This document shows positions 1,273 through 40,452 of a stretch of 41,301 nt of DNA, piece after piece. Origin of the DNA: Chloroflexota bacterium (GTDB lineage Bacteria; Chloroflexota; Anaerolineae; UBA4142; SHND01); contig JACQWQ010000171.1 in the NCBI GenBank assembly GCA_016209205.1, forward strand, positions 1 to 41,301, written 5' to 3'. A program made the translations under genes and the position numbers. Every line of letters starts with the position of its first letter. Positions within the stretch are counted from its first letter, which is position 1. Below the pieces are notes generated by a model that ran no database searches, was not told the DNA's origin, and worked only from the letters and a program-made list of their open reading frames with translations.

Positions 1273-1344
1273 GACAGGATTAACAGGATTAACAGGATTG
1301 AAAATTTAGGGTTTGAAAATCCTGTTAATCTTGTTAATCCTGTC
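1273..1344. repeat. Inverted ACAGGATTA word array
   Basis: The word ACAGGATTA is repeated on the left arm (1273-1299). Its complement is repeated on the right arm (1318-1344). The 27-bp arms match with a single mismatch around an A/T-rich loop. Similar words recur at about 23521-23552. The array lies between livM and livG and could fold as a long mRNA hairpin. Confidence 0.85.
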
Positions 1345-1355
1345 GAACTTTTCGG

Positions 1356-1375
1356 ACGAATGAATTCGTTACTAC
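1356..1375. repeat. Half copy of the GAATTCATTCGTT hairpin element supplying the livM stop
   Basis: This 20-bp stretch equals one arm of the hairpin at 1179-1228. On the minus strand it begins TAGTAACGAATTC, and its TAG is the livM stop codon (1372-1374). A weaker copy appears at the end of the hydrogenase protease gene (about 14838-14857), again containing the stop. Confidence 0.75.
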
Positions 1376-2406
1376 TCGGTGTACTTGCGCAGCCAGGGCA
1401 CGCGCCGCCGCAATTCACCAACCAGACCCGCCGGGACAAAGAGCACGATCAACAAGAGCAGCACTCCCGCGACCGCGACGTGCAATTCGCTGAACGCGCC
1501 GCTCGTCAACAAAAACGAGCGCAAGCGGTCGTAGACCACCGCGCCGACGATGGGCCCCGCGACGGTGCCGAATCCGCCCAGCATCACCGCGACCAACCCT
1601 TCAATCGAAGCGGTAAGCGAAAACGCGGGTCCCGGTTCGATGATGCCGTTCTTGAAAAAAAAGACCGCGCCCGCCATCGCCGGAAAGAGCGCCGAGATGG
1701 CGTACGCGATGACTTTGTAGCGCGCGGGTTGAATGCCCAACACTTGCGCCGCGTCTTGATCTTCGCGTATCCCCATCAAGCCCAGCCCGAACTTGCTTTG
1801 CTTGATGATGAAACTCGCCGCCACCGTCGCCAACGCGACCAGCACGATGGCGTAATACGCGAGCCACAATGCGTTTTTGGCGCCGCCGTACGCGTCGTAA
1901 AAACTGTAATCGAAGTTCATCCCGACCGATCCGCCGAACGGATCAAAATTGTTGACGAACGCGCGCACCGCTTCGTTGATGCCGATCGTCGCCAGCGCAA
2001 AGTACGCGCCGCGCAAACGCAGCACGGGGATGCCCAGCAGCGTCGCAAAGAGCGCGGCAAAAATTCCGCCCGCGAGCACGGCGACCGCCAGATGCACGTG
2101 AAAAGTCAGCATCATAAAAAACGCGACGTACCCGCCCAATCCGAAAAATACGATATTGCCAAAACTGACATAGCCGGTATAGCCCATGATGATGTTGACG
2201 GACGAGGCGAGAATCACCGCCATCAACACGAGAAAAATTTCTTCGCGCAGCGTCGGCGAATTTGTCACAATCGGAAACAGCGCGACGACGAGGATGACGC
2301 CGAGCACGAGTCCGAGAAACGGATGCGCGATCAGGCGCACGTACGGGATGAGGGTTTCGCGCCACGCGAGACGCGCGGACGCGGCAAACGGTTGCGAACT
2401 ATTCAT
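1372..2406 (-). CDS. livM: Branched-chain amino acid/amide ABC transporter permease (LivM-like)
   Basis: This 344-residue polytopic membrane protein has many hydrophobic segments from about residue 24 onward. It has the LivM-type stretch GAYFALATIGINEAVR and the conserved permease loop EDQDAAQVLGIQPARYK, which contacts the ATPase. Its C-terminal part carries GLVAVMLGGFGTVAGPIVGA. The ATG at 2406 is chosen because it overlaps the livH stop as ATGA (translational coupling), although the frame is open further upstream. The stop codon lies inside a repeat element. With LivH it forms the membrane channel of the importer. Confidence 0.92.
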   Translation of the reverse strand: MNSSQPFAASARLAWRETLIPYVRLIAHPFLGLVLGVILVVALFPIVTNSPTLREEIFLVLMAVILASSVNIIMGYTGYVSFGNIVFFGLGGYVAFFMMLTFHVHLAVAVLAGGIFAALFATLLGIPVLRLRGAYFALATIGINEAVRAFVNNFDPFGGSVGMNFDYSFYDAYGGAKNALWLAYYAIVLVALATVAASFIIKQSKFGLGLMGIREDQDAAQVLGIQPARYKVIAYAISALFPAMAGAVFFFKNGIIEPGPAFSLTASIEGLVAVMLGGFGTVAGPIVGAVVYDRLRSFLLTSGAFSELHVAVAGVLLLLIVLFVPAGLVGELRRRVPWLRKYTE

Positions 2407-3266
2407 GCGCGTGCTCCCAAGAGACCGTTCGGACGAACGAGCAGGATCAAAATGAAAATGACATATTCGATCACGGGCACCCAACCGACGGGAATAAAAA
2501 TCGTGGTGACGCCTTCGAGCAGTCCGAGCAAAATGCCGCCAATCAGCGCGCCCGTCGGATTGCCCAAGCCGCCGAGCACGACGATGACGAAACTCTTGAG
2601 CTCGAAACTGCCGCCCGCGAGAATCGTGAATGCAAACAGCGTCGCGATCAAGCCGCCCGCCGTCGTCGCCAACGCCGCGCCCAACCCGAAACTGAACGCG
2701 AGCATCGCGGTCGTGTTGATGCCCATCAGTTCCGCTGCGGCGCGATTGTTTGCCACCGCGCGAATGGATTTACCGACGCGCGTGCGGTACAGCAAGCCGT
2801 ACAGTCCGCCCGCCACCGCCAGCGCGATCAGCACCGCGATGATGCGCGTGCCGAGAATTGTCACCGCGCCGCTTTGCAGGGTGCCCACATCCACGTCGAG
2901 CGCGCGCGGCGTCGTCGTAAATGCCGCCGTGCCCAAGCCGATGATGATGAGCGATACCGCGAAGGTGGCGAGGAGCGTGGTGAGCTCGGGCTGATTGATG
3001 ACGCGATGCACCGCGACGAGATACATCACGATGCCAAACAACAATCCAAACATCAGCGTCAGCACGACGCCGACGTATGGATTCAGTCCGAGCTGCGTTG
3101 TAAGCAGGTACGTCGAGAACATGCCCAGCGCGATGATGGGCCCGTGCGCGAGATTGATGACGCGCATGACGCCAAAGATCAGCGAAAGGCCCATTGCCGC
3201 AAGCCCATAGATAAAACCGAGCATGATGCCGTCAATGGCAGAGGCGAAAAGTGCTTCCCAGTTCAT
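2403..3266 (-). CDS. livH: Branched-chain amino acid/amide ABC transporter permease (LivH-like)
   Basis: This 287-residue integral membrane permease has the LivH hallmarks: an N-terminal GIMLGFIYGLAAMGLSLIFGV segment, INLAHGPIIALGMF, and the coupling-loop region SIRAVANNRAAAELMGIN. A late GGLGNPTGALIGGILLG segment follows. Length and hydrophobic profile are normal. It is coupled to livM by a 4-base overlap and separated from the binding-protein gene by a 220-bp word array. Substrate cannot be told from sequence: branched-chain amino acids, urea and short amides are all known for this family. Confidence 0.93.
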   Translation of the reverse strand: MNWEALFASAIDGIMLGFIYGLAAMGLSLIFGVMRVINLAHGPIIALGMFSTYLLTTQLGLNPYVGVVLTLMFGLLFGIVMYLVAVHRVINQPELTTLLATFAVSLIIIGLGTAAFTTTPRALDVDVGTLQSGAVTILGTRIIAVLIALAVAGGLYGLLYRTRVGKSIRAVANNRAAAELMGINTTAMLAFSFGLGAALATTAGGLIATLFAFTILAGGSFELKSFVIVVLGGLGNPTGALIGGILLGLLEGVTTIFIPVGWVPVIEYVIFILILLVRPNGLLGARA

Positions 3267-3480
3267 AGTCGGATGGTTGGAGAGTCGGAGAGTCGGATGG
3301 TCGGATGGTCGGATGGTCAGATGGTTGGTGAGTCGGATGGTCGGATGGTCAGATGGTTGGTGAGTCGGATGGTCGGATAGTCAGGGCGTCGGATGGTCAG
3401 GGCGTCGGATAGTCGGATGGTCAAAGAGCTAATGACAACTAACCGACCAACCGACTACCCGACTACCCGACTACCTGACC
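3267..3480. repeat. GTCGGATG word array with inverted right half
   Basis: GTCGGATG/GTCAGATG words are repeated about fifteen times from 3271 to 3422. They are followed from about 3440 by complementary CGACTACC words. The two halves could pair as a long imperfect hairpin in the liv mRNA between the binding protein and permease genes. There are no unique spacers of constant size, so it is not a CRISPR array. Confidence 0.85.
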
Positions 3481-5029: not shown

Positions 5030-5134
5030 CAAGACCCCAAGTGTTTTTCAACGATGTTGCTGGAGCGGAGTTTGCTCCACGAGTCCGCGCTACGCGCTGG
5101 AATCGCCTGCGATTCCCAAACACTTGGGGTCTTG
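5030..5134. repeat. 17-bp-arm inverted repeat enclosing several hairpins
   Basis: Perfect arms lie at 5030-5046 and 5118-5134 (CAAGACCCCAAGTGTTT and its complement). The 71-bp interior holds nested hairpins: GGAGC/GCTCC around 5073-5089 and GGAATCGC/GCGATTCC around 5099-5116. The compact multi-stem layout looks like a small structured element or non-autonomous mobile element between the divergent liv and hdr units. No protein can be read in it. Confidence 0.75.
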
Positions 5135-14030: not shown

Positions 14031-14285
14031 TGGAGAGATGGAGAGCGGGAGAGCGGGAGAGATGGAGAGCGGGAGAGCGGGAGAGATGGAGAGCGGGAGA
14101 GCGGGAGAGATGGAGAGCGAGAGAGCGGGAGAGATGGAGAGCGAGAGAGCGGGAGAGATGGAGAGCGGGAGAGATAGAGAGCGGGAGAGCGGGAGAGATG
14201 GAGAGCACCACTCCCTCACTCCATCACTCCACCACTCCCTCACTCCATCACTCCACCACTCCCTCACTCCATCACCCCATCGCTC
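14031..14285. repeat. GGAGAGATGGAGAGCG minisatellite with complementary ACTCCATCACTCC half
   Basis: From the mvhA stop to about 14205, purine-rich units GGGAGAGATGGAGAGC repeat about ten times. From 14209 to 14280, pyrimidine-rich units CACTCCATCACTCCACCACTC repeat about four times. The two halves could pair partly. The right half runs into the start of the hydrogenase protease gene and has replaced its start region. Confidence 0.85.
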
Positions 14286-17384: not shown

Positions 17385-17466
17385 CCCCAGTAATCAGTAA
17401 TCAGTTATCAGTTATCAGTCATCAGTCACTGATTACTGGTCACTGCTCACTGGTCACTGATCACTA
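17385..17466. repeat. ATCAGT word array
   Basis: The words AATCAGT, TATCAGT and CATCAGT (17389-17430) are followed by the complementary CACTGATTACTGG and CACTGCTCACTGG words (17426-17469). The right end contains the malic enzyme stop codon (TAG, 17464-17466). The same word family recurs before cooS at 36645-36815. Confidence 0.85.
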
Positions 17467-20771: not shown

Positions 20772-20880
20772 CGTTTTGATGTAGACAGATAAACAGGTAT
20801 CGAGTAAACAGGGAATCAGGTAGTCAGCAGAGTACAAGGGCGCATCTAGCTGTCTGCCTGTCTACTTGTTTACCTGTCGT
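20772..20880. repeat. GTAGACAGATAAACAGG word array
   Basis: The words GTAGACAGATAAACAGGT and TAAACAGGGAATCAGG (20779-20826) are answered by CTGTCTGCCTGTCTACTTG and TTTACCTGTC (20850-20878). The same word family flanks acsB (29582-29680) and the acsV stop (about 21196-21215). Confidence 0.8.
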
Positions 20881-23220: not shown

Positions 23221-23568
23221 CCTCAAATGCGAAATGGGAAATGTGAAATGTGAAACGTGTTGCGTCAAACGTGAAACGCCAAGCCGTGCGACGTGCGAGC
23301 GAATGCGAGCATGAACGCACGGCGTATGTTCGGCGGCGTTGCGAGCGAATGCGAGCAATGTTCGCCCGAACATACAGAGGTTGGCGACGCGCGTTCAGCA
23401 TGTCCGCCAACCGAGTGATCCACGAAGGACACAAAGCACACGAAGAATCTTGGTGCCCTTCGTGTCCATCGTGGATCACACGTTTCCCGCAATACTCAGG
23501 CTTAAATCCAAATCCAAATCGAAAAATCCTGTCAATCCTGTTAATCCTGTCAAAAGAAACTTGCCGCT
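23221..23568. repeat. Composite word-array spacer between the MNT gene and acsV
   Basis: No gene is seen. From left to right there are GAAATGTGAAA/ACGTGAAAC words (23227-23280), GCGAGCGAATGCGAGC direct repeats, and GTATGTTCGG with its complement CCGAACATAC (about 23325-23373). GTGATCCACGAAGGACAC follows with its complement (about 23416-23479), then AATCCTGTTAATCC words (about 23523-23552). Each block is an inverted pair. Confidence 0.8.
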
Positions 23569-25303: not shown

Positions 25304-25785
25304 AACGTTCCGAGCAGAATGATTAGACCGATACCCAGCGCGGCTGCGGAAAAAAACAGTTGACGGGGCGGATAGCCCGCGCCTTGCACCCATCGCAGGA
25401 TGTCCAAAATCACAATCAAGCCGCGCAAGGTGTACACGCCGCCGATGAGTACGAGCGCCACACGCACGAGCGGAAGGCGACGAATGACGCCCGCGCCCGC
25501 CAGCGCATACACTCCAAAGACGGCAAAGAGCACCGCGAGCGCGAGCGTTGCGACGGCGGGGATTGGCGAACCTTGCATCGCCAGGCGCGCCAGATCCGCT
25601 GTACCAAAATAGATATAACCGGGCACGCCGATAACGACGATGAAAACGTGCAGCGCGGCAATTCCAAAATTGGCTGCTGCGCCTGCCAACAACAATGCTT
25701 TGCCAGGGCGCTCTCTTTGCGCGAATCGTCGAGTAGAAATAGATTGCGTGATGATAGAAAACCTCAATCGTGAAACGCCATTCAT
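25279..25785 (-). CDS. Small membrane protein, four predicted helices
   Basis: This 168-residue protein has hydrophobic segments near residues 29-50, 75-97, 104-127 and 143-160, separated by short charged loops. No motif is recognised. Its 3' end overlaps the truncated fumarase beta by 25 bases in another frame, as if a rearrangement joined the two. The ATG at 25785 lies in a GTTTCATGAATG word array without a clear ribosome-binding site, so the N terminus is uncertain. Confidence 0.55.
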   Translation of the reverse strand: MNGVSRLRFSIITQSISTRRFAQRERPGKALLLAGAAANFGIAALHVFIVVIGVPGYIYFGTADLARLAMQGSPIPAVATLALAVLFAVFGVYALAGAGVIRRLPLVRVALVLIGGVYTLRGLIVILDILRWVQGAGYPPRQLFFSAAALGIGLIILLGTFWRWRTTS

Positions 25786-25848
25786 GAAACGTCATTCATC
25801 AACATTCGTTTGACGCCTGACGTTTCACGTTTCACGCTTCACGTTTAC
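25786..25848. repeat. CGTTTCA/TGAAACG word array upstream of the membrane gene
   Basis: The words ACGTCATTCATC, TGACGCCTGACG, TTTCACG and TTCACGTTTACG fill the spacer after acsC and include the acsC stop (TAA, 25845-25847). The word family is shared with the spacers after hdrA and metF. Confidence 0.7.
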
Positions 25849-27164
25849 GGCTTTAACTTTAAAAACGCCGGAATATCCACCGCCTCGCGCGGACCCACTT
25901 CGACCTGCCAGCCCTGCAACGATTCTTCGACTTCGCCCAATAACACCGCGACTTGGCCCGGCAGCACGATGCGTTTACGCGGTGATTGTTGTTCCACGTT
26001 CGTCACCTTGACGGCTTTCGCGATGCGGTCGGCGTCGAATTTTCCTGCCGCCCATGCGGTGAGCACGCTCATGCCGTCCGCGTCGGCAATCAACAACCAT
26101 GCGGGGTGTCCCGAACCTTCGACTTCATTCGCGACACTGAAATACGTGATCGAGAAATTTGTCGTCACCAGCACGGGCGATTCGCCGTCGGGATTGTTGA
26201 TGGGATACAAACCGGGCTGCACCTGAATTGGTTTCTGTGGGTCGGTGTACAAATTCTGGCGCAGCACGAGCAGCGCGTACGCGCTCGCTTCGCTGAACGT
26301 GTCGAGCACGACAAAACCCGCGTATTTTGCAATCTGCTGCCCCGCGAGCGCAACATCATTGCCCGGGAACGCGATCAGCGGATAACCCAACGCGCGGAAA
26401 TTTTTCTTGATAGCGAGGCGGCGCAACTGCGTGAACGTTTGCAGCGAATCGGCGTAACCGCGCACCAACGGATCGAGCACCAAATCGTTGACGCCTGCCG
26501 CTTTTGCCTTGTCCGCCAACGCGGCGAGCGCGTTCAAATCCTTTGCGCGCAACGCGAGCGGCGCGTTGAATTTTTTCGCGACGGCGGCGAACGCGTCGAG
26601 ATTCGTTTCGTCCGCGCCATAGAGCAGCGGCACGGTGTCCTGCAATTTTCCCAACGCATGTTCGAGGGTCTGCGCGTTGGACGAATTGAGAATGAGCGGA
26701 ATCTGCGTCACCCCGCGCACGGCTTCGAGCGCGGCGAGAAATTTCGTTTCATCGCCCGATGTATTTTCGAGCGCAATCCCGTCGAGGTGCAGCTTGATGC
26801 CGACGTACTCGACGTGAAAATCCGCGATGCGCTGGGCAAGCGCGCGGATTTCGTCGAGTGGTTGGTCGTCGCGAATGCGCACGACAAGCGCGGTGGGATG
26901 ATAAAAAGTCTTTTCGTGACGGAACAAGACAATTTCGTTCCCCACTTGTACTTTTTGCCCGTCGCTCGCAATTGTCACCAAACGAATCGGCGGCTGCGAT
27001 GCCGCGTCGAGTTGTTCTTTGGACGCGGCGGAAACATAAGGACACGCCGCGAGGTCTGCTTGCTTTGCCGCGAGCTTCATCGCGAACGCGAGGCAGGTCA
27101 TTCCGCATTCTTTACAATTGGTTTGCGGCAACAGCTTGTAGATTTGTAGTCCGGTCAATGCCAT
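25845..27164 (-). CDS. acsC: Corrinoid/iron-sulfur protein large subunit (AcsC)
   Basis: This 439-residue protein carries the [4Fe-4S] cluster and binds the corrinoid jointly with AcsD. The N-terminal cluster ligands are C17, C20, C24 and C41 (TNCKECGMTCLAF...AACPYV). A TIM barrel (for example ILNSSNAQTLEHALG, LVLDPLVRGY) follows, then the C-terminal corrinoid domain with TNFSITYFSVANEV. The ATG at 27164 is preferred over upstream codons because it opens MALTGLQIYKLLP. It accepts methyl from AcsE and gives it to AcsB. A broken HNH gene on the other strand separates it from acsD. Confidence 0.94.
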   Translation of the reverse strand: MALTGLQIYKLLPQTNCKECGMTCLAFAMKLAAKQADLAACPYVSAASKEQLDAASQPPIRLVTIASDGQKVQVGNEIVLFRHEKTFYHPTALVVRIRDDQPLDEIRALAQRIADFHVEYVGIKLHLDGIALENTSGDETKFLAALEAVRGVTQIPLILNSSNAQTLEHALGKLQDTVPLLYGADETNLDAFAAVAKKFNAPLALRAKDLNALAALADKAKAAGVNDLVLDPLVRGYADSLQTFTQLRRLAIKKNFRALGYPLIAFPGNDVALAGQQIAKYAGFVVLDTFSEASAYALLVLRQNLYTDPQKPIQVQPGLYPINNPDGESPVLVTTNFSITYFSVANEVEGSGHPAWLLIADADGMSVLTAWAAGKFDADRIAKAVKVTNVEQQSPRKRIVLPGQVAVLLGEVEESLQGWQVEVGPREAVDIPAFLKLKP

Positions 27165-29576: not shown

Positions 29577-29581
29577 GGGAG

Positions 29582-29679
29582 GGATAGGTAGACAGGTAAA
29601 CAGGTAAATAGGTATCCTTCCTACTTGTCTACCTATTTACTTGTCTACTTGTTTACCTGTCTACCTGTCTACTTGTTTA
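29582..29679. repeat. GTAGACAGGTAAACAGG word array with inverted halves
   Basis: Left words GGTAGACAGGTAAACAGGT (29587-29614) and right words CTACTTGTCTACCTATTTAC (29618-29679) are mutual reverse complements over most of their length and would form a long hairpin. The right end contains the acsB stop codon (TAA, 29677-29679). Confidence 0.88.
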
Positions 29680-31962
29680 CATTAACGGATCCATCACCAA
29701 CGCGGGATGCTCTTTGCCTTCGAGATACGCGACCAAGTCCGGGACTTCGGTGCAAATGGTTTCGTCCGCGATCTTGTCCAGCAAATCGGGATCGCCCGCG
29801 AATTCCGCCGCGCGTTTCAATTCCTCCGCCATCGTCTGTTTGAGAATGGACGACATCCACACGACGCGTTTGAAACCGCCGTCCGCGCTCAGGAATTTTT
29901 TCGACGTGAGATAATACTTGCCCACACCCATCACGCCCGGCGTCTGCAAACCGCCGCCCGCCATGCCCGCCAACGTCGAGAACGTCATGCCCGCGGGCGT
30001 CATCGAAGTATCTTCGCGCGAGACGACCATCACGCCGTTCGCTTCGGGCACGACCATCACGATACATTCAAAGCACCCACATGCCGTCATCGGATTTTCC
30101 ATGATCGAGTACATCGAAACTTGTTCGACGCTGCCGTGCGAATGCTGCTGCACGAACGACGTTGGACCTGCCCAATAACCCTTGCTCGAATCCACCTGCA
30201 TCCCCTTTGGAATCGGTTGATTGGGACCGGTCGGGTTGATTTGGAAACTCGCTTTGCAATCGAGCCAGTTATACGCGCCGCACAAGCCGAGCCGTTCCGG
30301 CGAAACGACGCACACATGATTCGGCGCGAACGATTGACACAGCGTGCACGAATAGAATTCGTCCACCGCTTCGTCGGTCAGATCGGCGAGGCGCACATTC
30401 CGTTCCGCGTATGCTTCGCGTGCAACTTGAAGCATCGTGTTCACGTCGGCGGGATTCGTGAAAAGGTTGACTTGTACTTTGTCCACAATCGCGCCAAAGT
30501 CCGCGTGAAAACGCGCGTGCAAAATTTTGCCGAGATGTTCGAGACGGAATCCTTTTTCGAACGCGCCTTTGCTGACGCGAATCCACGCAATGTCGCGCTG
30601 TCCGATGTGCTGCACGCCCGACGCGCCGTTGACGAAATGATGAATCTGGCGTTCCAGCACCGGCTCGAAATCTTTTTGCATCTTGCGACCCGCGACTTCG
30701 ACCACGATGCCCACATCCATCGCGCCGCCGTCTTGCACTGTATCGAGATTCGGACCCAAGACCTGAATTTTGCCGTCCTCGACTTTATCCATCGGCAGCG
30801 AATACAGATATTCAAAGCAGCGCGAATGTTTGCCGCCAAACTCGACGCGCAAATCCGCTTTGCGTACGACTTCGCCTTCGAATGCGGAACCGTACGGTAC
30901 GGGGATCGGCACCTGCGTCATTTTGATTTTGACGCCGCGCACTTCGATGCACTTTTGCACCAATTTTTCCGCGCGTTCCAAATCATCCTTCGCTTCGATT
31001 TCTTCGAACGGCATCGAGCTGACGTGCTCGTACGTCGTCACGCCCGTCGGCAAAATTTGCGGAATCACCGTATCGGAGATGACGGGGAACCCGTACGAAA
31101 TTGCGCCCGCCGCCGTCGCGTATTTCAAATCGTCCACTTCGCCCAACGCGAGCACAAAGGCAAACACGCGCGCTTTGTTGTACAAAAGAATTTCGCGCGC
31201 TTGCCCGCCCTTCATCCCGCCGAACGTCAACGCGGAGCGCGTGGCGAAACCGAGCGCGTAAATTGCCGAAAGCGTGTCGGTGCCGAATGGGACGATGTAC
31301 GTGTCGTACCCCATCTCGACGCCTTCTTCTTGCAATTGATGAATGATGCTGCGCCCGTTCACATTGCCGCAGAGGAAAATCAAAATGTTGCGCTGCTGAA
31401 GTTCGCGCACGATCTTGACCGCGACCTCGTTCGATTTCGCGCAGCCGACGATTGCCGCAAAGCCGGGCATGCGCCCATCCACGAGTTGAATGCCCCACGA
31501 GCGCAATTGAATGTCGTCAATCGCGCCGTTGAGATGCCCGTCGCCGTCACCGGCTTGATATTCCGGCGAGGTGAACGCGCCGGTGCCTTGCGCGAGATGA
31601 AAACCCGCGAGCGGTTCGGGCTGCTGCCCGTACAAATAGTGCAGCGCCATCAGCGATTCTTCGGCGAGCAAGGTTGCCACACCCGAATCGAGCGTCTCGC
31701 CGAGATAAGGCACCCAGCGATTGTTGGCGGGAATCGGATGCAGCAGCGTTTTCACTTGCGCCATCACCGGCTGTAAATCGCCGACTGTTTCGACTTGGCG
31801 TCCGGTCAATCCAAGAATCGTCGGCAAAAAATACGCCGTGTTGGGAAAACCGATTTTGGTGTCCGCGCCTTTTTCGGCGAGCGCGCGATCCAACATTTCT
31901 TCTGTTTCTCGCACAATGTTATTTGCACCGCGAATCGCGGATTGGGCTATGTATCGGCTCAT
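29677..31962 (-). CDS. acsB: Acetyl-CoA synthase, CODH/ACS complex subunit (AcsB)
   Basis: This 761-residue bacterial-type ACS joins CO, a methyl group from AcsCD and CoA. The A-cluster ligands are visible: CTLCQSFAPNHVCVVSPERLGLCGAYNWLDC near residues 537-567, and the Cys-Gly-Cys of ACGCFECIV near 625 that binds the distal nickel. The N-terminal CODH-interacting domain (SRYIAQSAIRGANNIVRETEEM) is present, unlike in archaeal ACS. The ATG at 31962 has AAAGGAGACGCA directly upstream; a longer frame adds 9 unlikely residues. The stop lies in the downstream word array. A truncated second copy of its 5' end is found at 32868-32933. Confidence 0.95.
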   Translation of the reverse strand: MSRYIAQSAIRGANNIVRETEEMLDRALAEKGADTKIGFPNTAYFLPTILGLTGRQVETVGDLQPVMAQVKTLLHPIPANNRWVPYLGETLDSGVATLLAEESLMALHYLYGQQPEPLAGFHLAQGTGAFTSPEYQAGDGDGHLNGAIDDIQLRSWGIQLVDGRMPGFAAIVGCAKSNEVAVKIVRELQQRNILIFLCGNVNGRSIIHQLQEEGVEMGYDTYIVPFGTDTLSAIYALGFATRSALTFGGMKGGQAREILLYNKARVFAFVLALGEVDDLKYATAAGAISYGFPVISDTVIPQILPTGVTTYEHVSSMPFEEIEAKDDLERAEKLVQKCIEVRGVKIKMTQVPIPVPYGSAFEGEVVRKADLRVEFGGKHSRCFEYLYSLPMDKVEDGKIQVLGPNLDTVQDGGAMDVGIVVEVAGRKMQKDFEPVLERQIHHFVNGASGVQHIGQRDIAWIRVSKGAFEKGFRLEHLGKILHARFHADFGAIVDKVQVNLFTNPADVNTMLQVAREAYAERNVRLADLTDEAVDEFYSCTLCQSFAPNHVCVVSPERLGLCGAYNWLDCKASFQINPTGPNQPIPKGMQVDSSKGYWAGPTSFVQQHSHGSVEQVSMYSIMENPMTACGCFECIVMVVPEANGVMVVSREDTSMTPAGMTFSTLAGMAGGGLQTPGVMGVGKYYLTSKKFLSADGGFKRVVWMSSILKQTMAEELKRAAEFAGDPDLLDKIADETICTEVPDLVAYLEGKEHPALVMDPLM

Positions 31963-32933: not shown

Positions 32934-32993
32934 ACTCTCGACTCCTTGTCAGCCCCCGCGTTCGATGTTATGATTTCAACCGATGGAGGGCAG

Positions 32994-33374: not shown

Positions 33375-33810
33375 TTACAGCTGCGTTGCAGCTTGTGCCC
33401 GGATGGTCTTGGGCTTGTACGGAATTGAAAGAACAGAAACCGAACTCCGGCAATTGCTCAAAACTCGTCCGGGTATCGGTACCCACCCGATTCACCTACG
33501 CAACCTTGAATCGTTAGGTGTGGATGCCACCTGGCCCTATCCCGGCACGCTTGATGAGCTCCGCCAGATCATCGAACGCGGCATCCCTGTTATTGCCTTT
33601 GTGTGGACGGGCGCATTGCAATCCATTGTTGACTCGGAAGGCGCCGATTACCTGCATACCATTGTCATCGTCGGGTTTTCCGAGTCTGGAATCCTCATTC
33701 ACGATCCGCGTCTCGACACGGGTCCGGTAGAAATTTCCGTGAGTGTCTTTGGGAACGCATGGAAGTATGCCGACCATTTGATTGCGGTGGTCACCCGTCC
33801 TACTTTCTAA
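33340..33810 (+). CDS. C39-like papain-fold cysteine peptidase domain protein
   Basis: A 156-residue single-domain protein. The catalytic Cys is in QERDYSCVAACARMVLGLYG (about residues 9-28). The His lies in YLHTIVIVGFSESG and is followed by ILIHDPRL (Asp). This is the C39/bacteriocin-processing peptidase pattern without a transporter. It begins inside the preceding gene. It may process or be held by that partner; a substrate is not evident. The downstream neighbour is convergent. Confidence 0.8.
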   Translation: MIHLPHYLQERDYSCVAACARMVLGLYGIERTETELRQLLKTRPGIGTHPIHLRNLESLGVDATWPYPGTLDELRQIIERGIPVIAFVWTGALQSIVDSEGADYLHTIVIVGFSESGILIHDPRLDTGPVEISVSVFGNAWKYADHLIAVVTRPTF

Positions 33811-33843
33811 ACGCGCCCGTGCTATTCAATTCACATGCGCGTG

Positions 33844-34536: not shown

Positions 34537-34545
34537 CCTTTCCCT

Positions 34546-36618
34546 TTAGACGGGCTGCGCGTGCGCGTGTTCAGGCGCATGCTCATGTCCGTCTTCGTGC
34601 GCGTGTACGTGCGCTTCTGCGTGCGCGTGCACCCAACCGTACAACGCCTGCTTGCGTTCTTCGTCTTGTTTCGCCAACAATGCCTTGATGCGTTCATCGC
34701 CCGATTGACCGTACTTGGTCGGATCGTACGCGGGCAGTTTCAACGCCGCGCGTTTCGCGTCAATGTGCGCGAGTGAGCGTTTCACAATTTCTTGCGGATC
34801 GGGCACAAATTCCATTTTGCCGCCCACCAAATTTTCCCAACCTTCGCTCATCAGTTTGACGACGCGTGCACTCGCGCTCGTCGGCGCATTCACGCCAAAG
34901 ATGACGTACGCGCCGCTCGCGGCAAAGTACGCACCGATTGTCAGCGCCTTTTCGCTCATCCATTCGGGTGCAATGCCGACGCCGGGAATGTCGCTAATGT
35001 CTTCGCCTAAACCGCCTTCGCTTGCCATTTCGGTGAGGACGGTGAGGATGCGCGTATTGTCCACGCACGAACCCATGTGCAGCACGGGCGGAATGCCAAT
35101 CGCTTCGCATACTTCGCGCAAGCCGGGCCCCGCGTATTCGAGTGCGGCTTCGCCGGTGAGCAATCCGTATTTCGCGTTCGCCAGCGCGCCGCAGCCCGTT
35201 TGCACCACCAGCACATCGTTTTTCAAAAATTCCTTGACGATGTAATTGTGCGCGGCATCCTGCGTCGTGCGCGGATTGTTGCAGCCGACCACGCCCGCGA
35301 CCCCGCGCAAGCGCCCGCTCATCACCGCGTCGTTCAACGGGCGGAACGAGCCGCGAAACACGCCGCCTTGCATGTAGCGAATGTATTCGTGCGAAAAGCC
35401 CGGCACACAGTCGCACAACTCGTTCGGAATTTCCACCGCGCCGCGATTCGGATAATTGTCAATCGCCACGCGCACGATTTCTTTGGCAATGTCATACGCA
35501 TGGTCTTCGTTAAATTCAATGTGCGTGCCGCCTTCGATCTTTACTTTCGACGACGTGGTAATGAACTTGGTATGGAATTTTTGCGACAGCGGCGAGAGCG
35601 ACTGCATGATGCACTGCACGTCAACAATCATCGCATCCACCGCGCCCGTGATAATTGCGAGCTCTTGATTCAAGAAATTGCCCGCGCTCGGTACGCCCTG
35701 CCGCATCAAGGTTTCGTTCGAGGTGCAGCAAATACCGCAGAGGTTGATGCCTGTCGCGCCTTTGGTCTTGGCATACTCGACCAACTCGGGATCGTACGCC
35801 GCTTTCACAATCATTTCTGAAAGGGTGGGTTCGTGTCCGTGAATGACGAGATTGACTTGATCGAGTTTCAACACGCCGAGATTCACTTGCGACACGAGCG
35901 GCGACGGTGTGCCAAACATCACGTCCGAAATATCCGTCGCCATCATCGAACCGCCCCAGCCATCCGCGAGCGAGGCGCGCAGCGCGCCGAGCAAAATATG
36001 TTCCGCATCTTGATCGTCGCCCATGTGCGTGCGATGCAAAATGTCCACGACTTCGCGGTCAATCCCGCGCGGCGTGATGCCGAGCTTGCGCCAAATCTCT
36101 TGGCGTTTTTGCGGCGCACGCGCGACGTACAGCAATTCGCCTTTTTGTTTGCCAAAATCGGCAAGCCCTTTTTCGGCGACCTCTTTGGCAATCTCGTTGA
36201 CGGCGCGCCCGTCGGTCTTGACGCCAAAATACGCGGCGATGGTTTTCAATTTCGCCGGATCGCGAATTTCATAACCCTGCGCGTGTTTTTCGGCAATCGC
36301 CAACAGCGTGAACAACAAATCGCGTCCGTGATCGCTGTGCGCGGCAGTTCCGGCGGCGATGTGACGCGCCATGTTGCGCGCCGTCACCGTGTCAATCGTC
36401 GCGCCGCAGACGCCGGTCGGCAGTGGTTGTCCTTTCGGCGCGACGAGGCGGCACGGTCCCATGTCGCACACGGAACAGCACGCGCCGCTTTCGCCAATCG
36501 GGCACGGCTGCAATTTTGCCGCGCGCGAAAACGCGGTCGAATAGCCCAACGCATCTGCACGTTTCAACACTTGTTCGGCAGCGGGATCAATTGTGCGGAC
36601 AATAGTCTCTTTTGGCAT
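34546..36618 (-). CDS. cooS: Anaerobic carbon monoxide dehydrogenase catalytic subunit with His-rich tail (CooS/AcsA)
   Basis: This 690-residue Ni-Fe-S enzyme interconverts CO and CO2. N-terminal Cys for the D and B clusters are C39, C47, C48, C51 and C56 (CPIGESGACCSVCDMGPC). C-cluster neighbourhoods include INLCGICCTSNE, VVGCNN, VQTGCGALA and HMGSCVDN. The last 27 residues hold nine His, mostly HxH pairs, with Glu and Ala. Typical CooS/AcsA ends before this. The tail looks like the nickel-binding tails of chaperones such as CooJ. The ATG at 36618 has GAGGAGAG upstream. Confidence 0.95.
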   Translation of the reverse strand: MPKETIVRTIDPAAEQVLKRADALGYSTAFSRAAKLQPCPIGESGACCSVCDMGPCRLVAPKGQPLPTGVCGATIDTVTARNMARHIAAGTAAHSDHGRDLLFTLLAIAEKHAQGYEIRDPAKLKTIAAYFGVKTDGRAVNEIAKEVAEKGLADFGKQKGELLYVARAPQKRQEIWRKLGITPRGIDREVVDILHRTHMGDDQDAEHILLGALRASLADGWGGSMMATDISDVMFGTPSPLVSQVNLGVLKLDQVNLVIHGHEPTLSEMIVKAAYDPELVEYAKTKGATGINLCGICCTSNETLMRQGVPSAGNFLNQELAIITGAVDAMIVDVQCIMQSLSPLSQKFHTKFITTSSKVKIEGGTHIEFNEDHAYDIAKEIVRVAIDNYPNRGAVEIPNELCDCVPGFSHEYIRYMQGGVFRGSFRPLNDAVMSGRLRGVAGVVGCNNPRTTQDAAHNYIVKEFLKNDVLVVQTGCGALANAKYGLLTGEAALEYAGPGLREVCEAIGIPPVLHMGSCVDNTRILTVLTEMASEGGLGEDISDIPGVGIAPEWMSEKALTIGAYFAASGAYVIFGVNAPTSASARVVKLMSEGWENLVGGKMEFVPDPQEIVKRSLAHIDAKRAALKLPAYDPTKYGQSGDERIKALLAKQDEERKQALYGWVHAHAEAHVHAHEDGHEHAPEHAHAQPV

Positions 36619-36639
36619 TAGCTCTCTCCTCGCGGTCAA

Positions 36640-36815
36640 TAATCAGTGGTCGGTGGTTAGTAATCAGTGATCAGTAATCAGTAATCAGTGACCAGTGTCT
36701 GACCACTGACGACTGCTGACCGACAACTGATGACTGATGACTGATGACTGATGACTGATGACTGATGACTGATGACTGATAACTGATAACTGATAACTGA
36801 TAACTGATAACTGGC
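36640..36815. repeat. AATCAGT / ACTGATG word array before cooS
   Basis: Left words TAATCAGT/GATCAGT (36640-36695) are followed by at least fourteen complementary ACTGATG/ACTGATA words (36725-36812). It runs from the HMA-like gene stop to the cooS ribosome-binding site region. It is the cleanest example of the inverted word layout in the window. Confidence 0.9.
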
Positions 36816-36817
36816 TC

Positions 36818-37147
36818 TTAATACTTGCGAAACTCTCCCGACATTTGCAAATCCACCGGATTGGTTGTCACGACGCGCTGCGCGAGCACATCCCACGCCG
36901 GGTCGGAGGTGTGGTCGGGCGTGCGTTCGACGACCTCGGGGTCGCCCGGCGCATAGCCCGCATCGGTGAGCGCATCGAGCAATTGCGCGCGCGAAATTTT
37001 TTCGGGGTCAAACTGCACGGCGACTTCTTTGAACGCCGAACTCGCATACACATCTTCCACGCCGTTCAGGGCAAACAACAACTGCCGCACGCGCGTGACG
37101 TGATGATCGGCATACACTTTCGGGATGATAAGAAACAGTCGTTCCAT
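36818..37147 (-). CDS. HMA-like metal-binding-fold protein without the CxxC motif
   Basis: This 109-residue protein has a heavy-metal-associated ferredoxin-like fold: LFLIIPKVYADHHVTRVRQLLFALNGVEDVYASSAFKEVAVQFDPEKISRAQLLDALTDAGYAPG. The metal loop that normally reads MxCxxC is KVYADHH, giving His-His instead of Cys-Cys. A tail of about 40 residues follows. GGAGGAATC precedes the ATG. It lies directly upstream of cooS, which bears a His-rich tail, so a nickel-delivery role is a reasonable guess. It may also have lost metal binding. Confidence 0.75.
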   Translation of the reverse strand: MERLFLIIPKVYADHHVTRVRQLLFALNGVEDVYASSAFKEVAVQFDPEKISRAQLLDALTDAGYAPGDPEVVERTPDHTSDPAWDVLAQRVVTTNPVDLQMSGEFRKY

Positions 37148-37215
37148 GATTCCTCCGTTGGCGTAACGCGAATCGCATAGCGTGTATCGCCGGGTATGGA
37201 TTGCTTATCCTCTGC

Positions 37216-37644
37216 TCACTGCTGCTTGTGTTTCAGTGGGCGTTTGATTTGCACCAAATGCAAAATGTCCTTGACATCTCTGGCGGTCGTGACTGGAATA
37301 AAGAGCCAGCGTCCATCGTGCAGGGGACGCGCGGCGTCGAAAATTTTTCTGACTTTTTTCCCCAATGACAATTCGTTCGCCCGCGCTGCCTCTGCGCCGC
37401 CCAATACGACCAGCGCCGTGAATTTCCCGCTTTGGGGTGTGAGTTGGACGAGTGTCCTGCCGGCTTTGCGAAACCAAACGTCCCACCCGGAATTTTTGCC
37501 AAAATACTTGAATTCGCCCGGCAAATCATATTGCGCGCCCATGAATGCAGCAATTTGTTCCCACAACATGCGTTTCGCGCCGAGTACTTGCAGAATTTGT
37601 TCCGGCGTCGGCTGCGGTTCCTTGTCCAAAAATGCGCTCGCCAT
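37216..37644 (-). CDS. DUF3788-like protein
   Basis: This 142-residue soluble protein matches my recall of DUF3788: FLDKEPQPTPEQILQVLGAKRMLWEQIAAFM, FKYFGKNSGWDVWFRKAGRTLVQLTPQSGKFTALVVLGG, and a late DGRWLFIPVTTARDVKDILHLVQIK. The fold probably resembles SRPBCC or YdhG-type proteins, with no catalytic residues known. GAGGTAACGAAA precedes the ATG. It starts 5 bases after the DUF166-like stop, so the two are translated from one message. Confidence 0.75.
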   Translation of the reverse strand: MASAFLDKEPQPTPEQILQVLGAKRMLWEQIAAFMGAQYDLPGEFKYFGKNSGWDVWFRKAGRTLVQLTPQSGKFTALVVLGGAEAARANELSLGKKVRKIFDAARPLHDGRWLFIPVTTARDVKDILHLVQIKRPLKHKQQ

Positions 37645-37649
37645 TTTCG

Positions 37650-38390
37650 TTACCTCGGTTTCAGATACGCGATTTGGCGGTGTGGTTTCACCACATGCAC
37701 AATCGCATCCACCGTCAAGTTTCCTGATACGTGCATCAATGTATCCGAATAATCGGGATCCATGCCCATCGCCGCGAGGCAGGGATAATGATGGTGCAGC
37801 ATCCCCGCGCCAAATTCCGCGTCGTTGACGGGAACCTGCGCCAAACCGTTCGCGACAAATTCACTGCACCCGCACGGCGACGCGCGCTCGACCGCGACGG
37901 ATTGAATTTTCCCGTCGCGCACCGCGACGCTAAAACGCGGCATTCCGAAATGGCGCGCAAACTCCGCAATCAACGCGTTGTCGTACTCGACGCGCTGTTT
38001 GCGCAAACTGTACGAATTTTCGGTGAGCGAACAGAATGGTTTGGGAAAAACACTCGTGACGCCAATTTCACTCAGCCAACCGCGCAGTTGATTCGCCAAT
38101 CCTTTGGGCAGACACGCGTTGTTATCAACCGGCGCAATGACCGCTTGCGCGCCGGTCATTTTGCAAATATCGGGAATCAATTCGGCGACGCCGGGATGTT
38201 CGCCGAGCGCCAGGATCAAATCGGCGGAATCAAAGCGGGCGGGGAGAAAATCGCGTGGTTCGTCAATCACGAGCGGATAGCGCGCGGGCGCGCGCCATTC
38301 TTGAACGCGCCATTTCTTTGGCGCATGGGCGCGTACATTCTCGGCGATACGCTCGCCATATAGCCCGGTCGTGACTGCGAGAATCCGCAT
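37650..38390 (-). CDS. DUF166-like protein
   Basis: This 246-residue protein opens with MRILAVTTGLYGERIAENV. Conserved-looking Cys are in DICKMTGA, PKPFCSLTE, SPCGCSEFVA and HHYPCLAAMG. Similar proteins (DUF166, by recall) occur mainly in methanogens and acetogens. Several Cys, and HHHYPC near the C terminus, suggest metal or cluster binding. GAGGAATCA precedes the ATG. Its setting between metF and cooS suggests a role in C1 or cofactor metabolism, without direct proof. Confidence 0.65.
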   Translation of the reverse strand: MRILAVTTGLYGERIAENVRAHAPKKWRVQEWRAPARYPLVIDEPRDFLPARFDSADLILALGEHPGVAELIPDICKMTGAQAVIAPVDNNACLPKGLANQLRGWLSEIGVTSVFPKPFCSLTENSYSLRKQRVEYDNALIAEFARHFGMPRFSVAVRDGKIQSVAVERASPCGCSEFVANGLAQVPVNDAEFGAGMLHHHYPCLAAMGMDPDYSDTLMHVSGNLTVDAIVHVVKPHRQIAYLKPR

Positions 38391-38403
38391 TGATTCCTCG
38401 ACA

Positions 38404-38582
38404 TGTCATTGCGAGGGAGCGCGGCGATGTAGGCGATGAACTGCATCGCACATCGCATGCGACAGAAGCAATCTCAACGCCAATCGCAGGGAGATTGCTT
38501 CGTGCGACAAATGAAGTGTGATTTTTCGCCTGCATAGCAGGCAGGAAAAATCCACACTTCACGTCGCACTCGCAATGATAAT
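38404..38582. repeat. TCATTGCGAG-ended composite inverted element
   Basis: The ends TCATTGCGAG (38406-38415) and CTCGCAATGA (38569-38578) are inverted repeats. Inside are GAAGCAATCTC/GAGATTGCTTC (about 38466-38502) and a long hairpin GAAGTGTG...CACACTTC (about 38512-38561) with ATTTTTC/GAAAAAT and CCTGC/GCAGG. The right end contains the phosphoesterase stop codon (TAA, 38583-38585, adjacent). The layout resembles widespread bacterial 'ATTGCGAG' intergenic repeats. Confidence 0.8.
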
Positions 38583-39272
38583 TTACATTCCTACTCTCAA
38601 CGTTTCCTGCAAACGCACAACGTGTTCGGGATCGAGCGGCAGCAGCGCCAATTTTTGAATCGTCGCCCGTGGGTCATAGTCAATGTGTTGAATCTTCAAA
38701 TCGCCGTCGTTCCACACCGCGTACGTGCAGCTCGGCAAACCGTGGCGCGGTTGTCCGAGACTGCCCGGATTCACCAACCACCGTTGTCCCACCCGCCGTA
38801 GCAGCGGCACGTGCGTATGTCCGCTCAGAATTACATCTGCCGCGATGCCATCGAATGCTTTTTCCAAAGCTCGATGCGATGCCGTTAGCACATCCAAACG
38901 TGGGCCCGCGCGATGCGTCAACCAAAAACGCGCGCCGCCCTGTTCCCGTTCCGCCGTCGGCGACAGCGCGCCGAGATAAACGAGCGACGGGTGCGGCAGC
39001 AGCGTACGATTGATCCGGCGCGTGGCGTGGGCGACTTGAAGCCATTCCTCCGGCGAGACGCAATCTGCGCCCGTCGCCGCGGCCGCATCGTGATCGCCTT
39101 GCACCCATACGGTCGCATTGTTCTTGAGCCAGGTCATGCACACGAGCGGATCGGGTCCATACCCGACCGCGTCGCCGAGAAAGAACAACGCGTCGGGTTG
39201 GGGCTCGACGTGCTGTAATGCCATCAACGCCTCAAGGTTCGCGTGCAGGTCGGAAAAAATTAGAATGCGCAT
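38583..39272 (-). CDS. Calcineurin-like metallophosphoesterase (YfcE/MJ0936-like)
   Basis: This 229-residue two-metal phosphodiesterase has the motifs in order: SDLHANLEAL (D-x-H), FLGDAVGYGPDP (GD), VQGDHDAA (GDH in place of GNHD), HRAGP, and LSGHTHVP (GHxH). The GNHD Asn is His-shifted here (GDHD). The ATG at 39272 gives the conserved MRILIFSDLH. A longer frame runs into the word array. Substrate unknown. It is embedded between metF and the DUF166-like gene in the same direction. Confidence 0.85.
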   Translation of the reverse strand: MRILIFSDLHANLEALMALQHVEPQPDALFFLGDAVGYGPDPLVCMTWLKNNATVWVQGDHDAAAATGADCVSPEEWLQVAHATRRINRTLLPHPSLVYLGALSPTAEREQGGARFWLTHRAGPRLDVLTASHRALEKAFDGIAADVILSGHTHVPLLRRVGQRWLVNPGSLGQPRHGLPSCTYAVWNDGDLKIQHIDYDPRATIQKLALLPLDPEHVVRLQETLRVGM

Positions 39273-39274
39273 AA

Positions 39275-39350
39275 CACTTTGACGTTTGACGTTTGACGAG
39301 GGCAAATTCTGAAACGTGAAACGTAAAACGTCACGAGTCAAACGTCAATG
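39275..39350. repeat. GACGTTTGA / AACGTGAAACG word array
   Basis: TTGACGTTTGACGTTTGACG (about 39279-39298) is followed by GAAACGTGAAACGTAAAACG and the complementary AGTCAAACGTCAATG (39335-39349), which contains the metF stop (TGA, 39345-39347). The words match those of the hdrA-mvhD spacer. Confidence 0.82.
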
Positions 39351-40307
39351 CAACGCCGGTTGCGCGACGTCCTCCGTTTCCAACTCATGCGGGCGCGGCA
39401 AAAGCTTTGCTTGCGCAGCAATGCGCGGGACCGCTTCTTCCCACTCGATGCTCATGATGTGCACGCCCGCGATGCCGGCGATATCTTTCATCTGTTCGAT
39501 AATCTCGACACAAATGTTGATGCCTTCCGCGCGCCACTTGTCTTTGGGCGTACCTTCCATGCGTTTCACCAATTCGTCCGGCATCTCCATTCCGGCGACG
39601 TTATCGCGCATATAGCGCGCCATGCCCGGCGATTTCAACGGACCCACGCCGGCGAGGATAAATGCGCGTTCGTGCAAATCCAATTCACAAACGTGCGCCA
39701 TAAAGTCTTTAAAGCGCGTGACATTGAAAATCATTTGCGTTTGAATGAACTGCGCGCCCGCGTCAATTTTTTTCTTTAAGCGGTGCGGGCGAAATTCGTA
39801 GGGCGGCGCAAACGGATTCTCTACCGCGCCAATGAAAAAACGCGGCGCGGGTTTCAATTCTTCGCCGCATTGAAACTTGCCTTCATTCAGCCCACGTACC
39901 ATCGCCACCAGATTCACCGAATCGAGATCGAATACTTTGCGCGCTTCGGGATGGTTGCCGCCAACCATGTGATCGCCCGTCAGACACAGGACGTTGCGGA
40001 CGCCCAGCGCGTGTGCGCCGAGCAAATCAGACTGCATCGCGATGCGGTTGCGGTCGCGGCACGTCATCTGAATCACTGGCTCGATGCCTTGTTGCATCAG
40101 CAGTTGCGCGCCTGCAATGGAGGACATGCGCACGATGGCAGTTTGATTGTCGGTGATGTTGAGCGCGTCGGCGCAGTGTCGCAGCAAGTCGCCTTTGGCG
40201 CGAATCACTTCCGCGTCCGCGTTTTTCGGCGGTCCTAGTTCCGCGGTGACGGCAAAATGCGTCGTACGCAGGGCTTGTTCGAGACGGCTCGTGTATTGTT
40301 CGTCCAT
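39345..40307 (-). CDS. metF: Methylenetetrahydrofolate reductase (MetF)
   Basis: This 320-residue FAD TIM-barrel enzyme reduces methylene-THF to methyl-THF. Family features are FAVTAELGPPKNADAE, DALNITDNQTAIVRMSS, IQMTCRDRNRIAMQSDLLGAHALGVRNVLCLTGDH, AGAQFIQTQMIF and ILAGVGPLKS. The ATG at 40307 has GAGG 7 bases upstream; ATG 40319 is also open. It pairs with MetV just upstream, the acetogen/anaerobe type in which MetF needs the Cys-rich partner and may use ferredoxin or another donor instead of NADH. Confidence 0.94.
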   Translation of the reverse strand: MDEQYTSRLEQALRTTHFAVTAELGPPKNADAEVIRAKGDLLRHCADALNITDNQTAIVRMSSIAGAQLLMQQGIEPVIQMTCRDRNRIAMQSDLLGAHALGVRNVLCLTGDHMVGGNHPEARKVFDLDSVNLVAMVRGLNEGKFQCGEELKPAPRFFIGAVENPFAPPYEFRPHRLKKKIDAGAQFIQTQMIFNVTRFKDFMAHVCELDLHERAFILAGVGPLKSPGMARYMRDNVAGMEMPDELVKRMEGTPKDKWRAEGINICVEIIEQMKDIAGIAGVHIMSIEWEEAVPRIAAQAKLLPRPHELETEDVAQPALH

Positions 40308-40321
40308 GCTATGCCTCATCA

Positions 40322-40452
40322 GAATTCAAAATTAGAAATTCAGAATTCAAAGTTGGAAATTCAAAATTAGAAATTCGTGCGTCAAAGAACGGCGCGTTTG
40401 AATTTCCAATTTCCAATTTCCATTTTCCAATTTCCAATTTCCATTTTCTAAT
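40322..40452. repeat. AATTCAAAATTAGAAATTC / AATTTCCAATTTCC word array
   Basis: Left words GAATTCAAA and TTAGAAATTC (40321-40378) face right words AATTTCCA repeated seven times (40399-40447). Much of the two halves is complementary. The array begins in the metV stop region (TGA at 40453-40455 on the minus strand) and ends near the metF start. Confidence 0.85.

What the first reader, a model, noticed from the sequence alone, without database searches (positions are those of the whole stretch)
1273..40452. Inverted word arrays fill most spacers, each with its own word, often beginning at the stop codon
At least a dozen spacers (1273-1344, 3267-3480, 9108-9238, 14031-14285, 17385-17466, 20772-20880, 29582-29679, 36640-36815, 39275-39350, 40322-40452 and others) hold degenerate 6-9 bp words repeated several times, then the reverse complement of the same word. 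The word differs from spacer to spacer. In many cases (acsB, acsC, metF, metV, malic enzyme, hdrA, livM) the array contains or touches the upstream stop codon. The transcript would carry a long hairpin right after each ORF. This could be a general 3'-end or mRNA-stability system, or a replication-slippage process that copies local sequence back on itself. I know no described family of this kind, but similar spacers may be common in Chloroflexota.
Basis: partly seen in the sequence, partly recalled or inferred. Interest (0 to 1): 0.72.

Follow-up and report, generated by a model that had tools for sequence, protein, structure and literature searches.

The report
Fast-changing hairpin repeats after gene ends
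Many gaps between neighbouring genes in this uncultured Chloroflexota bacterium begin, right at a gene's stop codon, with short DNA words repeated in one direction and then in reverse, so the messenger RNA would fold into a hairpin whose letters are largely rewritten between distant relatives.

Summary
All ten spacers listed by coordinates carry period-7/8/9 word arrays and inverted arms that beat 500 shuffles (p<=0.002). In 40 contig starts not chosen for arrays, 75 of 258 co-directional spacers hold arrays (shuffles 0.4). Arrays start within 10 nt of, or overlap, the upstream stop in 35 of 75 (18.9 expected).

Corrections. Words recur (89 among 242 arrays). The kind is known: cyanobacterial STRR hairpins and TAACTGA repeats. 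Arms share words but not unit order, and G-U does not exceed A-C (255:255): pairing is not kept base by base.

New points. One word hairpin, (CAGTNAT)n/(ATNACTG)n with one free base, occurs in about ten phyla but in 2 of 301 Chloroflexota genomes. The first arm is purine-rich in 67 of 77 array hairpins. At orthologous spacers relatives never share this genome's word (0 of 8), yet a hairpin often follows the same gene: 8 of 10 vhuA copies, 22 of 30 acsB loci (other genes there 27 of 50).

Best reading: DNA-level growth makes intercistronic hairpins, probably mRNA-decay barriers, not terminators. No RNA data.

The parts
1273..1344 (-). Inverted array, word ACAGGATTA (period 9); arms 1273-1299 and 1318-1344
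   Evidence: RNA fold z -10.5
3267..3480 (-). Array of GTCGGATG-type words (period 8) with a reversed array; best arms 3283-3312 and 3443-3472
   Evidence: 47 other matches in the genome
9108..9238 (+). Heptamer array after hdrA (7029-9107), running over its stop; best arms 9115-9134 and 9213-9232
   Evidence: different word hairpins at the same spacer in G006, G009, G018
14031..14285 (+). GGAGAGCG octamer array then CACTCCAT array after vhuA; arms 14031-14099 and 14211-14279
   Evidence: mirror control as high; relatives
17385..17466 (-). CAGTNAT-type heptamers and their reverse, after the malic enzyme gene (17464-18828); arms 17389-17425 and 17429-17465
20772..20880 (-). Degenerate AGGTAGAC-type octamers; best arms 20784-20799 and 20863-20878 (weakest of the ten)
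   Evidence: p 0.002 for both scores; z -4.3
23409..23485 (-). Inverted pair of CACGAAGGACAC-type sequence, arms 23409-23446 and 23448-23485
25758..25854 (-). GTGAAACG-type heptamers and reverse, arms 25758-25802 and 25810-25854
   Evidence: z -5.4
29582..29680 (-). AGGTAAAC/AGGTAGAC octamer array and its reverse directly after acsB (29677-31989); best arms 29583-29614 and 29630-29661
   Evidence: relatives; z -6.1
36640..36815 (-). CAGTNAT heptamer array and ATNACTG reverse array upstream of the CODH gene (34546-36639); arms 36642-36696 and 36726-36780
   Evidence: mirror control as high
39275..39350 (-). TTTGACG heptamers and reverse over the stop of the metF-like gene (39345-40319); arms 39280-39298 and 39315-39333; a pyrimidine-first exception
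40322..40452 (-). AATTTCC/AAATTC heptamers and reverse; best arms 40323-40365 and 40397-40439
   Evidence: z -7.0

Best explanation
These are STRR-type inverted word arrays: a short tandem array (unit mostly 7, also 8-9 nt) of one word, usually in its purine-rich orientation, a loop, then a separately built array of the same word reversed. SHOWN: they lie between genes, preferentially at the upstream stop codon; this genome has them where same-genus sisters often have short or overlapping gene junctions; words differ from those of relatives at the same spacer; the arms share words but not unit order. INFERRED ORIGIN: a DNA-level process, growth of each arm on its own by slippage-type duplication, plus some copying of arrays between loci, which repeatedly builds hairpins with new words. 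INFERRED EFFECT: in the transcript the hairpin, which has no U-tract, hinders 3'-to-5' decay or marks a processing boundary at the end of the upstream cistron; it is tolerated and at some junctions weakly favoured, so a hairpin can persist while its letters change.
For: Array and hairpin excess over shuffles and mirror controls. Stop-proximal position in this genome and in relatives (48 vs 13; order 15 vs 1; genus 13 vs 3). 36 orthologous pairs: relative has an array in 8, same word in 0, median gap 187 vs 53 nt. Hairpins with other words after hdrA in G006, G009, G018, after 8 of 10 vhuA copies in relatives, after 22 of 30 acsB loci, own included. Unit order not matched in arms; no excess pairing at the free base; G-U equals A-C: all point to DNA-level, not base-by-base RNA, shaping. 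Two arrays at unrelated loci are 99% identical over 114 nt with unrelated flanks. No U-tract-type terminator excess in 28000-41301. E. coli intercistronic hairpins without U-tract protect upstream cistrons in 26 of 34 cases (PMC5927463, passages).
Against: No transcript data. G-U 255 vs A-C 255 gives no sign of RNA-level selection, while E. coli 3' hairpins gave 12 vs 2 (the rRNA/tRNA control, 3 vs 1, was uninformative). acsB is not significantly above other genes in the same loci (22 of 30 vs 27 of 50, p 0.10). Most same-genus orthologous spacers lack arrays. Some words do persist by descent or between paralogues: both G006 vhuA copies (AGTTCAA), G009 copies and G008 (GGGAGCAG-like), G013:C74 and G019; G006 and G007 after acsB. 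Unit-barcode copying was not above a Markov null. Slippage was not observed, only inferred.
Confidence: 0.45

Rival explanations
1. Neutral or selfish repeats without an RNA role. Arrays grow wherever they do least harm; in short operon gaps that is the stretch between the stop codon and the ribosome-binding site, which by itself gives the stop-proximal pattern.
For: G-U equals A-C; arms not matched; lineage-specific presence, with gene overlaps of 4 nt in sisters at the largest array; arrays occur in all spacer classes (75 of 258, 6 of 34, 6 of 33).
Against: A hairpin, not just any array, recurs at the same gene ends in other genera, although such hairpins are common there anyway (27 of 50); CAGTNAT hairpins avoid divergent spacers (4 of 95 vs 62 of 360, p 0.0009).
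Confidence: 0.3
2. Mobile miniature elements (REPIN- or MITE-like): the inverted words are terminal repeats moved by a transposase.
For: Dispersed words, a 114-nt array pair at unrelated loci, fixed arm polarity, lineage-specific gain; four Y1 transposase matches in the genome.
Against: No constant ends or length, 89 words, flanks and loops unrelated in the 24 cross-phylum loci printed; target duplications were not tested.
Confidence: 0.1
3. Repeats spread between phyla by horizontal transfer and kept as binding sites of a regulator that reads the word (MacGregor's proposal for TAACTGA, there at start codons).
For: The same CAGTNAT hairpin in about ten phyla with a fixed core and one free base, yet only 2 of 301 Chloroflexota genomes.
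Against: Many other words in the same genomes; no flanking homology; GGA, the CsrA core, not enriched; position at stops, not starts (61 vs 13).
Confidence: 0.07
4. Rho-independent transcription terminators.
For: Hairpins just after stop codons.
Against: No U-tract seen after the arms printed; terminator-like sites not above shuffles in 28000-41301 (14 vs mean 18.4; rest of the window not scanned); arrays lie inside runs of co-directional acs, hdr and vhu genes.
Confidence: 0.03

Closest known systems
STRR (short tandemly repeated repetitive) sequences of filamentous cyanobacteria, including the hupS-hupL hairpin (PMC2670836, passages; the original 1990 paper is not held)
   Same: Short units, usually 7 nt, intergenic, hairpin-forming, between genes of an operon; transcript stability or translational coupling proposed there too.
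   Different: Here units of 7, 8 and 9 nt, dozens of words in one genome, separately built inverted arms, stop-proximal placement measured, and words compared at orthologous spacers; phylum Chloroflexota.
TAACTGA direct repeats of Beggiatoaceae, cyanobacteria and Bacteroidetes (PMC4679880: abstract, passages and one section read)
   Same: TAACTGA is a form of the CAGTNAT word of the 17385 and 36640 arrays; scattered across phyla.
   Different: Described as direct repeats (169 sets, one indirect), mostly just upstream of start codons; here inverted pairs next to stop codons.
Intercistronic mRNA-protecting hairpins of E. coli operons (PMC5927463, passages)
   Same: Hairpin after a cistron, without U-tract, inside operons.
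   Different: Those are mapped by Term-seq and not built of word arrays; here no RNA evidence.
REP/REPIN elements and RAYT transposases (PMC3733652 and PMC3116915, passages)
   Same: Intergenic inverted repeats that can form hairpins.
   Different: REPs are defined families with fixed sequence and a tagged end; the arrays have many words and no constant end.
Heptamer satellites of Chloroflexus aurantiacus, (GATAGRA)n (PMC6749651, passages)
   Same: Dispersed heptamer arrays in the same phylum.
   Different: One word; inverted pairing or gene-end position is not mentioned in the passages seen.

Membership tests
Cyanobacterial STRR hairpins | Tandem units of about 7 nt in intergenic DNA | tested here: met
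   Period 7 commonest (13.9 per 100 kb), but 8, 9 and 10 present (3.7, 2.3, 2.5); 1 of 158 genic segments
Cyanobacterial STRR hairpins | Can form a hairpin between genes | tested here: met
   38 of 75 co-directional array spacers also have hairpin score >=14; folds
Cyanobacterial STRR hairpins | The named STRR words (recalled, not from a call) | not tested
   No search made with those words
TAACTGA repeats (Beggiatoaceae) | Arrays of the TAACTGA word | tested here: met
   Only for the CAGTNAT-type arrays, e.g. 36640-36815; other words form the majority
TAACTGA repeats (Beggiatoaceae) | Mostly directly upstream of start codons, direct not inverted | tested here: not met
   CAGTNAT hairpins: closer to the stop 61, to the start 13
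Rho-independent terminator | Hairpin followed by a U-tract | tested here: not met
   14 sites vs 18.4 in shuffles, 28000-41301 only
REP/REPIN | Fixed palindromic sequence with tagged end | tested here: not met
   89 words, no constant end
REP/REPIN | RAYT transposase in the genome | tested here: inconclusive
   Four PF01797 matches over the cut-off in the own genome; RAYT subtype not tested
mRNA-protecting intercistronic hairpin | Stable hairpin after a cistron without U-tract | tested here: met
mRNA-protecting intercistronic hairpin | Transcript 3' ends or half-life step at the hairpin | not testable with these tools
   No RNA data
Selected RNA structure | G-U pairs exceed A-C oppositions on the transcribed strand | tested here: not met
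   255:255 in 406 hairpins, 95% CI 0.456-0.544
CsrA binding sites | GGA enriched in the words | tested here: not met
   Not among the top 3-mers of this genome's words; z 1.6 in cross-phylum words

The most novel reading that the evidence does not exclude
Across many bacterial phyla an unidentified DNA-writing process builds gene-end hairpins from a shared grammar: 7-nt words with a free position, purine arm first, two separately written arms. It rewrites the words over time while a hairpin persists at the gene end, so a functional mRNA boundary is inherited as a structure with little inherited sequence. (Probability lowered slightly, from 0.20 to 0.18, after one search showed some words shared between relatives and paralogues at vhuA.)
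Probability: 0.18. Interest if true: 0.88.

Novelty: new variant of a known kind. Interest (0 to 1): 0.6.

Why it matters
If the hairpins set mRNA ends, operon output in these bacteria is tuned by elements that alignment-based comparison and Rfam do not see (no Rfam match in the window), because the fold and not the sequence is kept. If they do not, they are a large class of fast-changing repeats with an unexplained word grammar that recurs across phyla. Either way, the question left open by the TAACTGA report (same word in distant phyla, no mechanism evident) becomes testable by strain comparison and 3'-end mapping, and the Wood-Ljungdahl operons here offer defined junctions.

Tried and rejected
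Fold-back copying of one arm into the other: unit-order test (mean 20.6 vs 18.9 unit-shuffled, 2 of 48 at <=5%) and free-base test speak against it.

RNA-level pair selection by G-U excess: no significant excess in any of the eight subsets; an earlier count agreed (56:74 in arrays).

CsrA sites (GGA): not enriched.

Stop codons in the first arm as cause of the polarity: of 257 array hairpins arm 1 has more stops in 94, fewer in 100; purine-first persists at equal stops (53:8). Polarity is weaker in relatives (30:13), absent in the arrays of the acsB loci (14:13), and E. coli 3' hairpins also lean purine-first (27:9); best hairpins of shuffled array spacers gave 82:58. So it is not unique to arrays.

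One shared vocabulary across phyla: 7 of 64 words shared with this genome's 75, null mean 2.2, maximum 7, mostly the query's own word family.

Whole-array copying by unit barcodes: not above a Markov null, though a single pair looks copied.

Arrays confined to co-directional spacers: p about 0.001 with the array-seeded stretches but 0.22 in the number-chosen sample, so not claimed.

Permuted-word control GACTNAT: 0 of 301 Chloroflexota genomes; only one permutation tried.

One search read the vhuA loci without turning them and in some showed the wrong side of the gene; it is replaced and not used.
Full report
WHAT WAS CHECKED. The window is contig 92 of a 6.38 Mb, 279-contig draft genome, 93.9% complete. 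Ten of its proteins were scanned: HdrA-like, Vhu-type hydrogenase subunits, CO dehydrogenase catalytic subunit, acetyl-CoA synthase alpha/beta, a methylenetetrahydrofolate reductase-like protein, malic enzyme-like and branched-chain amino acid transport proteins, i.e. a Wood-Ljungdahl region. Five spacers were read directly. I wrote a simple gene caller and two detectors: T, the best period 6-10 self-match run, and H, the best ungapped inverted match (match +1, mismatch -1.5). Gene calls are home-made, so single gene ends may be off.

THE ARRAYS ARE REAL. All ten spacers listed by coordinates beat 500 dinucleotide shuffles in T and H (p <= 0.002); in two (14031, 36640) a mirror control scores as high as the inverted match. 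For background I used 40 contig starts picked by contig number (567,550 bp) and kept apart 20 stretches chosen because they matched one array. In the number-chosen set T >= 12 occurs in 75 of 258 co-directional, 6 of 34 convergent and 6 of 33 divergent spacers (shuffles 0.4, 0, 0); H >= 14 in 70, 15 and 9 (mirror 7, 1, 0). One of 158 genic segments has an array. Period 7 dominates (13.9 per 100 kb), then 8 (3.7), 10 (2.5) and 9 (2.3); 269,556 shuffled bases and 50 kb of E. coli give none; same-genus samples (24-57 kb each) give 0 to 11 of periods 7+8 per 100 kb.

POSITION. Of 75 arrays in co-directional spacers, 35 begin within 10 nt of the upstream stop or overlap it (18.9 expected), 15 end as close to the next start; 23 of the 35 contain the stop. 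With shuffle p-values, hairpins (p <= 0.02) occur in 122 of 242 co-directional gaps of 50-600 nt, 48 within 10 nt of the stop and 13 of the start; other genera of the order 29 of 45 (15 vs 1; these stretches were fetched around HdrA or one fixed region, not at random); same genus 27 of 95 (13 vs 3); three other genomes of the class 6 of 21 (3 vs 0); E. coli 2 of 12 (0 vs 1).

WORDS. 242 intergenic arrays in 982,918 bp use 89 canonical words, led by ACCATCCG (16), AAACGTG (13), AACAGGATT (11) and ACCCGTC (10).

ACROSS SPECIES. Three blocks were compared with relatives. In 36 orthologous co-directional pairs covering 12 arrays of this genome, the relative has an array (T >= 12) in 8 and never this genome's word; median gap 187 nt here, 53 nt there. 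In 66 pairs without an array here, relatives have one in 5 (Fisher p 0.059). The 338-nt spacer of L065 lies where two sisters have genes overlapping by 4 nt. After hdrA, G006, G009 and G018 carry their own inverted arrays (AGTGGTC-, GCGTGAT- and AAACGTA-type), G023 a weak one, G008 an ordinary hairpin (by eye). After vhuA, turned correctly and tested with 200 shuffles, 8 of 10 copies in relatives have a hairpin (no shuffle as good) whose first arm starts between -1 and +12 nt of the stop; G018 and G012 have none. There, words are partly shared among relatives: both G006 copies use AGTTCAA, the G009 copies and G008 use GGGAGCAG-like words, G013:C74 and G019 resemble each other. So words persist over some distance and differ over more. 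After acsB I analysed the 30 loci returned (own included), of 117 matching genomes among 298: 24 of 30 have a hairpin at p <= 0.02 in the called spacer, 22 of 30 in a fixed window, against 27 of 50 other stops in the same loci (p 0.10). In order-level relatives these are often word arrays, farther out mostly ordinary hairpins. Post-stop hairpins are thus general in these genomes and acsB is not shown to be special.

ACROSS PHYLA. The 80 titles shown include Chloroflexota, Deltaproteobacteria/Desulfobacca, Chlorobiaceae, Acidobacteria, Planctomycetia, cyanobacteria (Fischerella, Microcystis, Nostocales), Lentisphaerae, Verrucomicrobia (Chthoniobacter flavus), Hyphomicrobiales and KSB1 (the grouping into about ten phyla is mine). 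Several are isolates, so binning error is not the whole cause. Flanks and loops look unrelated in the 24 loci printed. Among 301 Chloroflexota genomes the pattern is in two (six hairpins here, one in G083), the permuted word GACTNAT in none. Of 117 such hairpins none is inside a called gene; 22 near contig edges could not be classed; 74 are co-directional, 17 convergent, 4 divergent (background 252, 46, 62; divergent depletion p 0.0009).

INTERNAL GRAMMAR. (i) Units outside the search pattern keep A, G, T, A, T at 0.93-0.98 and C at 0.73; the fifth base is free (A .37, G .36, T .16, C .11; n = 488). The loci were selected by the fixed positions, so the telling figure is that neighbouring units agree at the free base in only 111 of 252 cases. 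(ii) The purine-rich orientation comes first: 67 vs 10 hairpins, 40 vs 6 word families here; 52 vs 14 in cross-phylum arrays outside the query; CAGT-first 10 vs 0 in this genome's samples. Against a special meaning: shuffled spacers 82 vs 58, relatives 30 vs 13, acsB-locus arrays 14 vs 13, E. coli 3' hairpins 27 vs 9. (iii) The arms use the same word but not the same unit order.

MECHANISM. Shown: position, lineage-specific presence, word difference, separately built arms, strand symmetry of mismatches. Inferred: slippage-type growth plus some copying as origin; a barrier to 3'-to-5' decay as effect. The second inference rests on anatomy and on the E. coli precedent (PMC5927463, passages). The strongest result against an RNA role is the tie of G-U and A-C oppositions in 406 hairpins. 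It does not exclude a role for the hairpin as a whole, since single pairs of a long imperfect stem may be nearly neutral.

LITERATURE. Nine full-text searches. Seen: PMC4679880 (abstract, passages, one section), and passages only of PMC2670836, PMC6749651, PMC4060949, PMC3733652, PMC2408588, PMC4853749, PMC5927463, PMC3116915. In what I saw, none describes inverted word arrays at gene ends whose words differ between species; subscription papers, among them the 1990 STRR paper, could not be read, so this is not a claim of absence from print.

Noticed in passing
window 1179-1228 and 1356-1375: A palindromic sequence GTAGTAACGAATTCATTCGTT...AACGAATGAATTCGTTACTAC, also in other spacers of the genome (L015, L028, L030); it begins with GTAG like REP elements.
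   Followed up: partly
window 5030-5046 and 5118-5134: Inverted repeat CAAGACCCCAAGTGTTT...AAACACTTGGGGTCTTG; the same family recurs in many spacers of the genome with loops near 35 nt.
   Followed up: no
L012, L015, L018, L024, L026, L027: Dispersed inverted repeat beginning TGTCATTTCGA or TGTCATATCGA in spacers of the own genome.
   Followed up: no
L035 7439-7592: A stretch of about 154 nt repeated at 94-99% identity in at least 15 listed places of the own genome.
   Followed up: no
window 32050-32274: Two tandem copies of a 112-nt unit, 98% alike.
   Followed up: no
window 7029-9107 (hdrA): Several HdrA relatives have an in-frame TGA, which may be selenocysteine; this copy has none.
   Followed up: no
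window 29677-31989 and 7029-9107: Five same-genus genomes lack a strong match to this AcsB and to a near-full-length HdrA, so the Wood-Ljungdahl region may be missing or newly gained within the genus.
   Followed up: no
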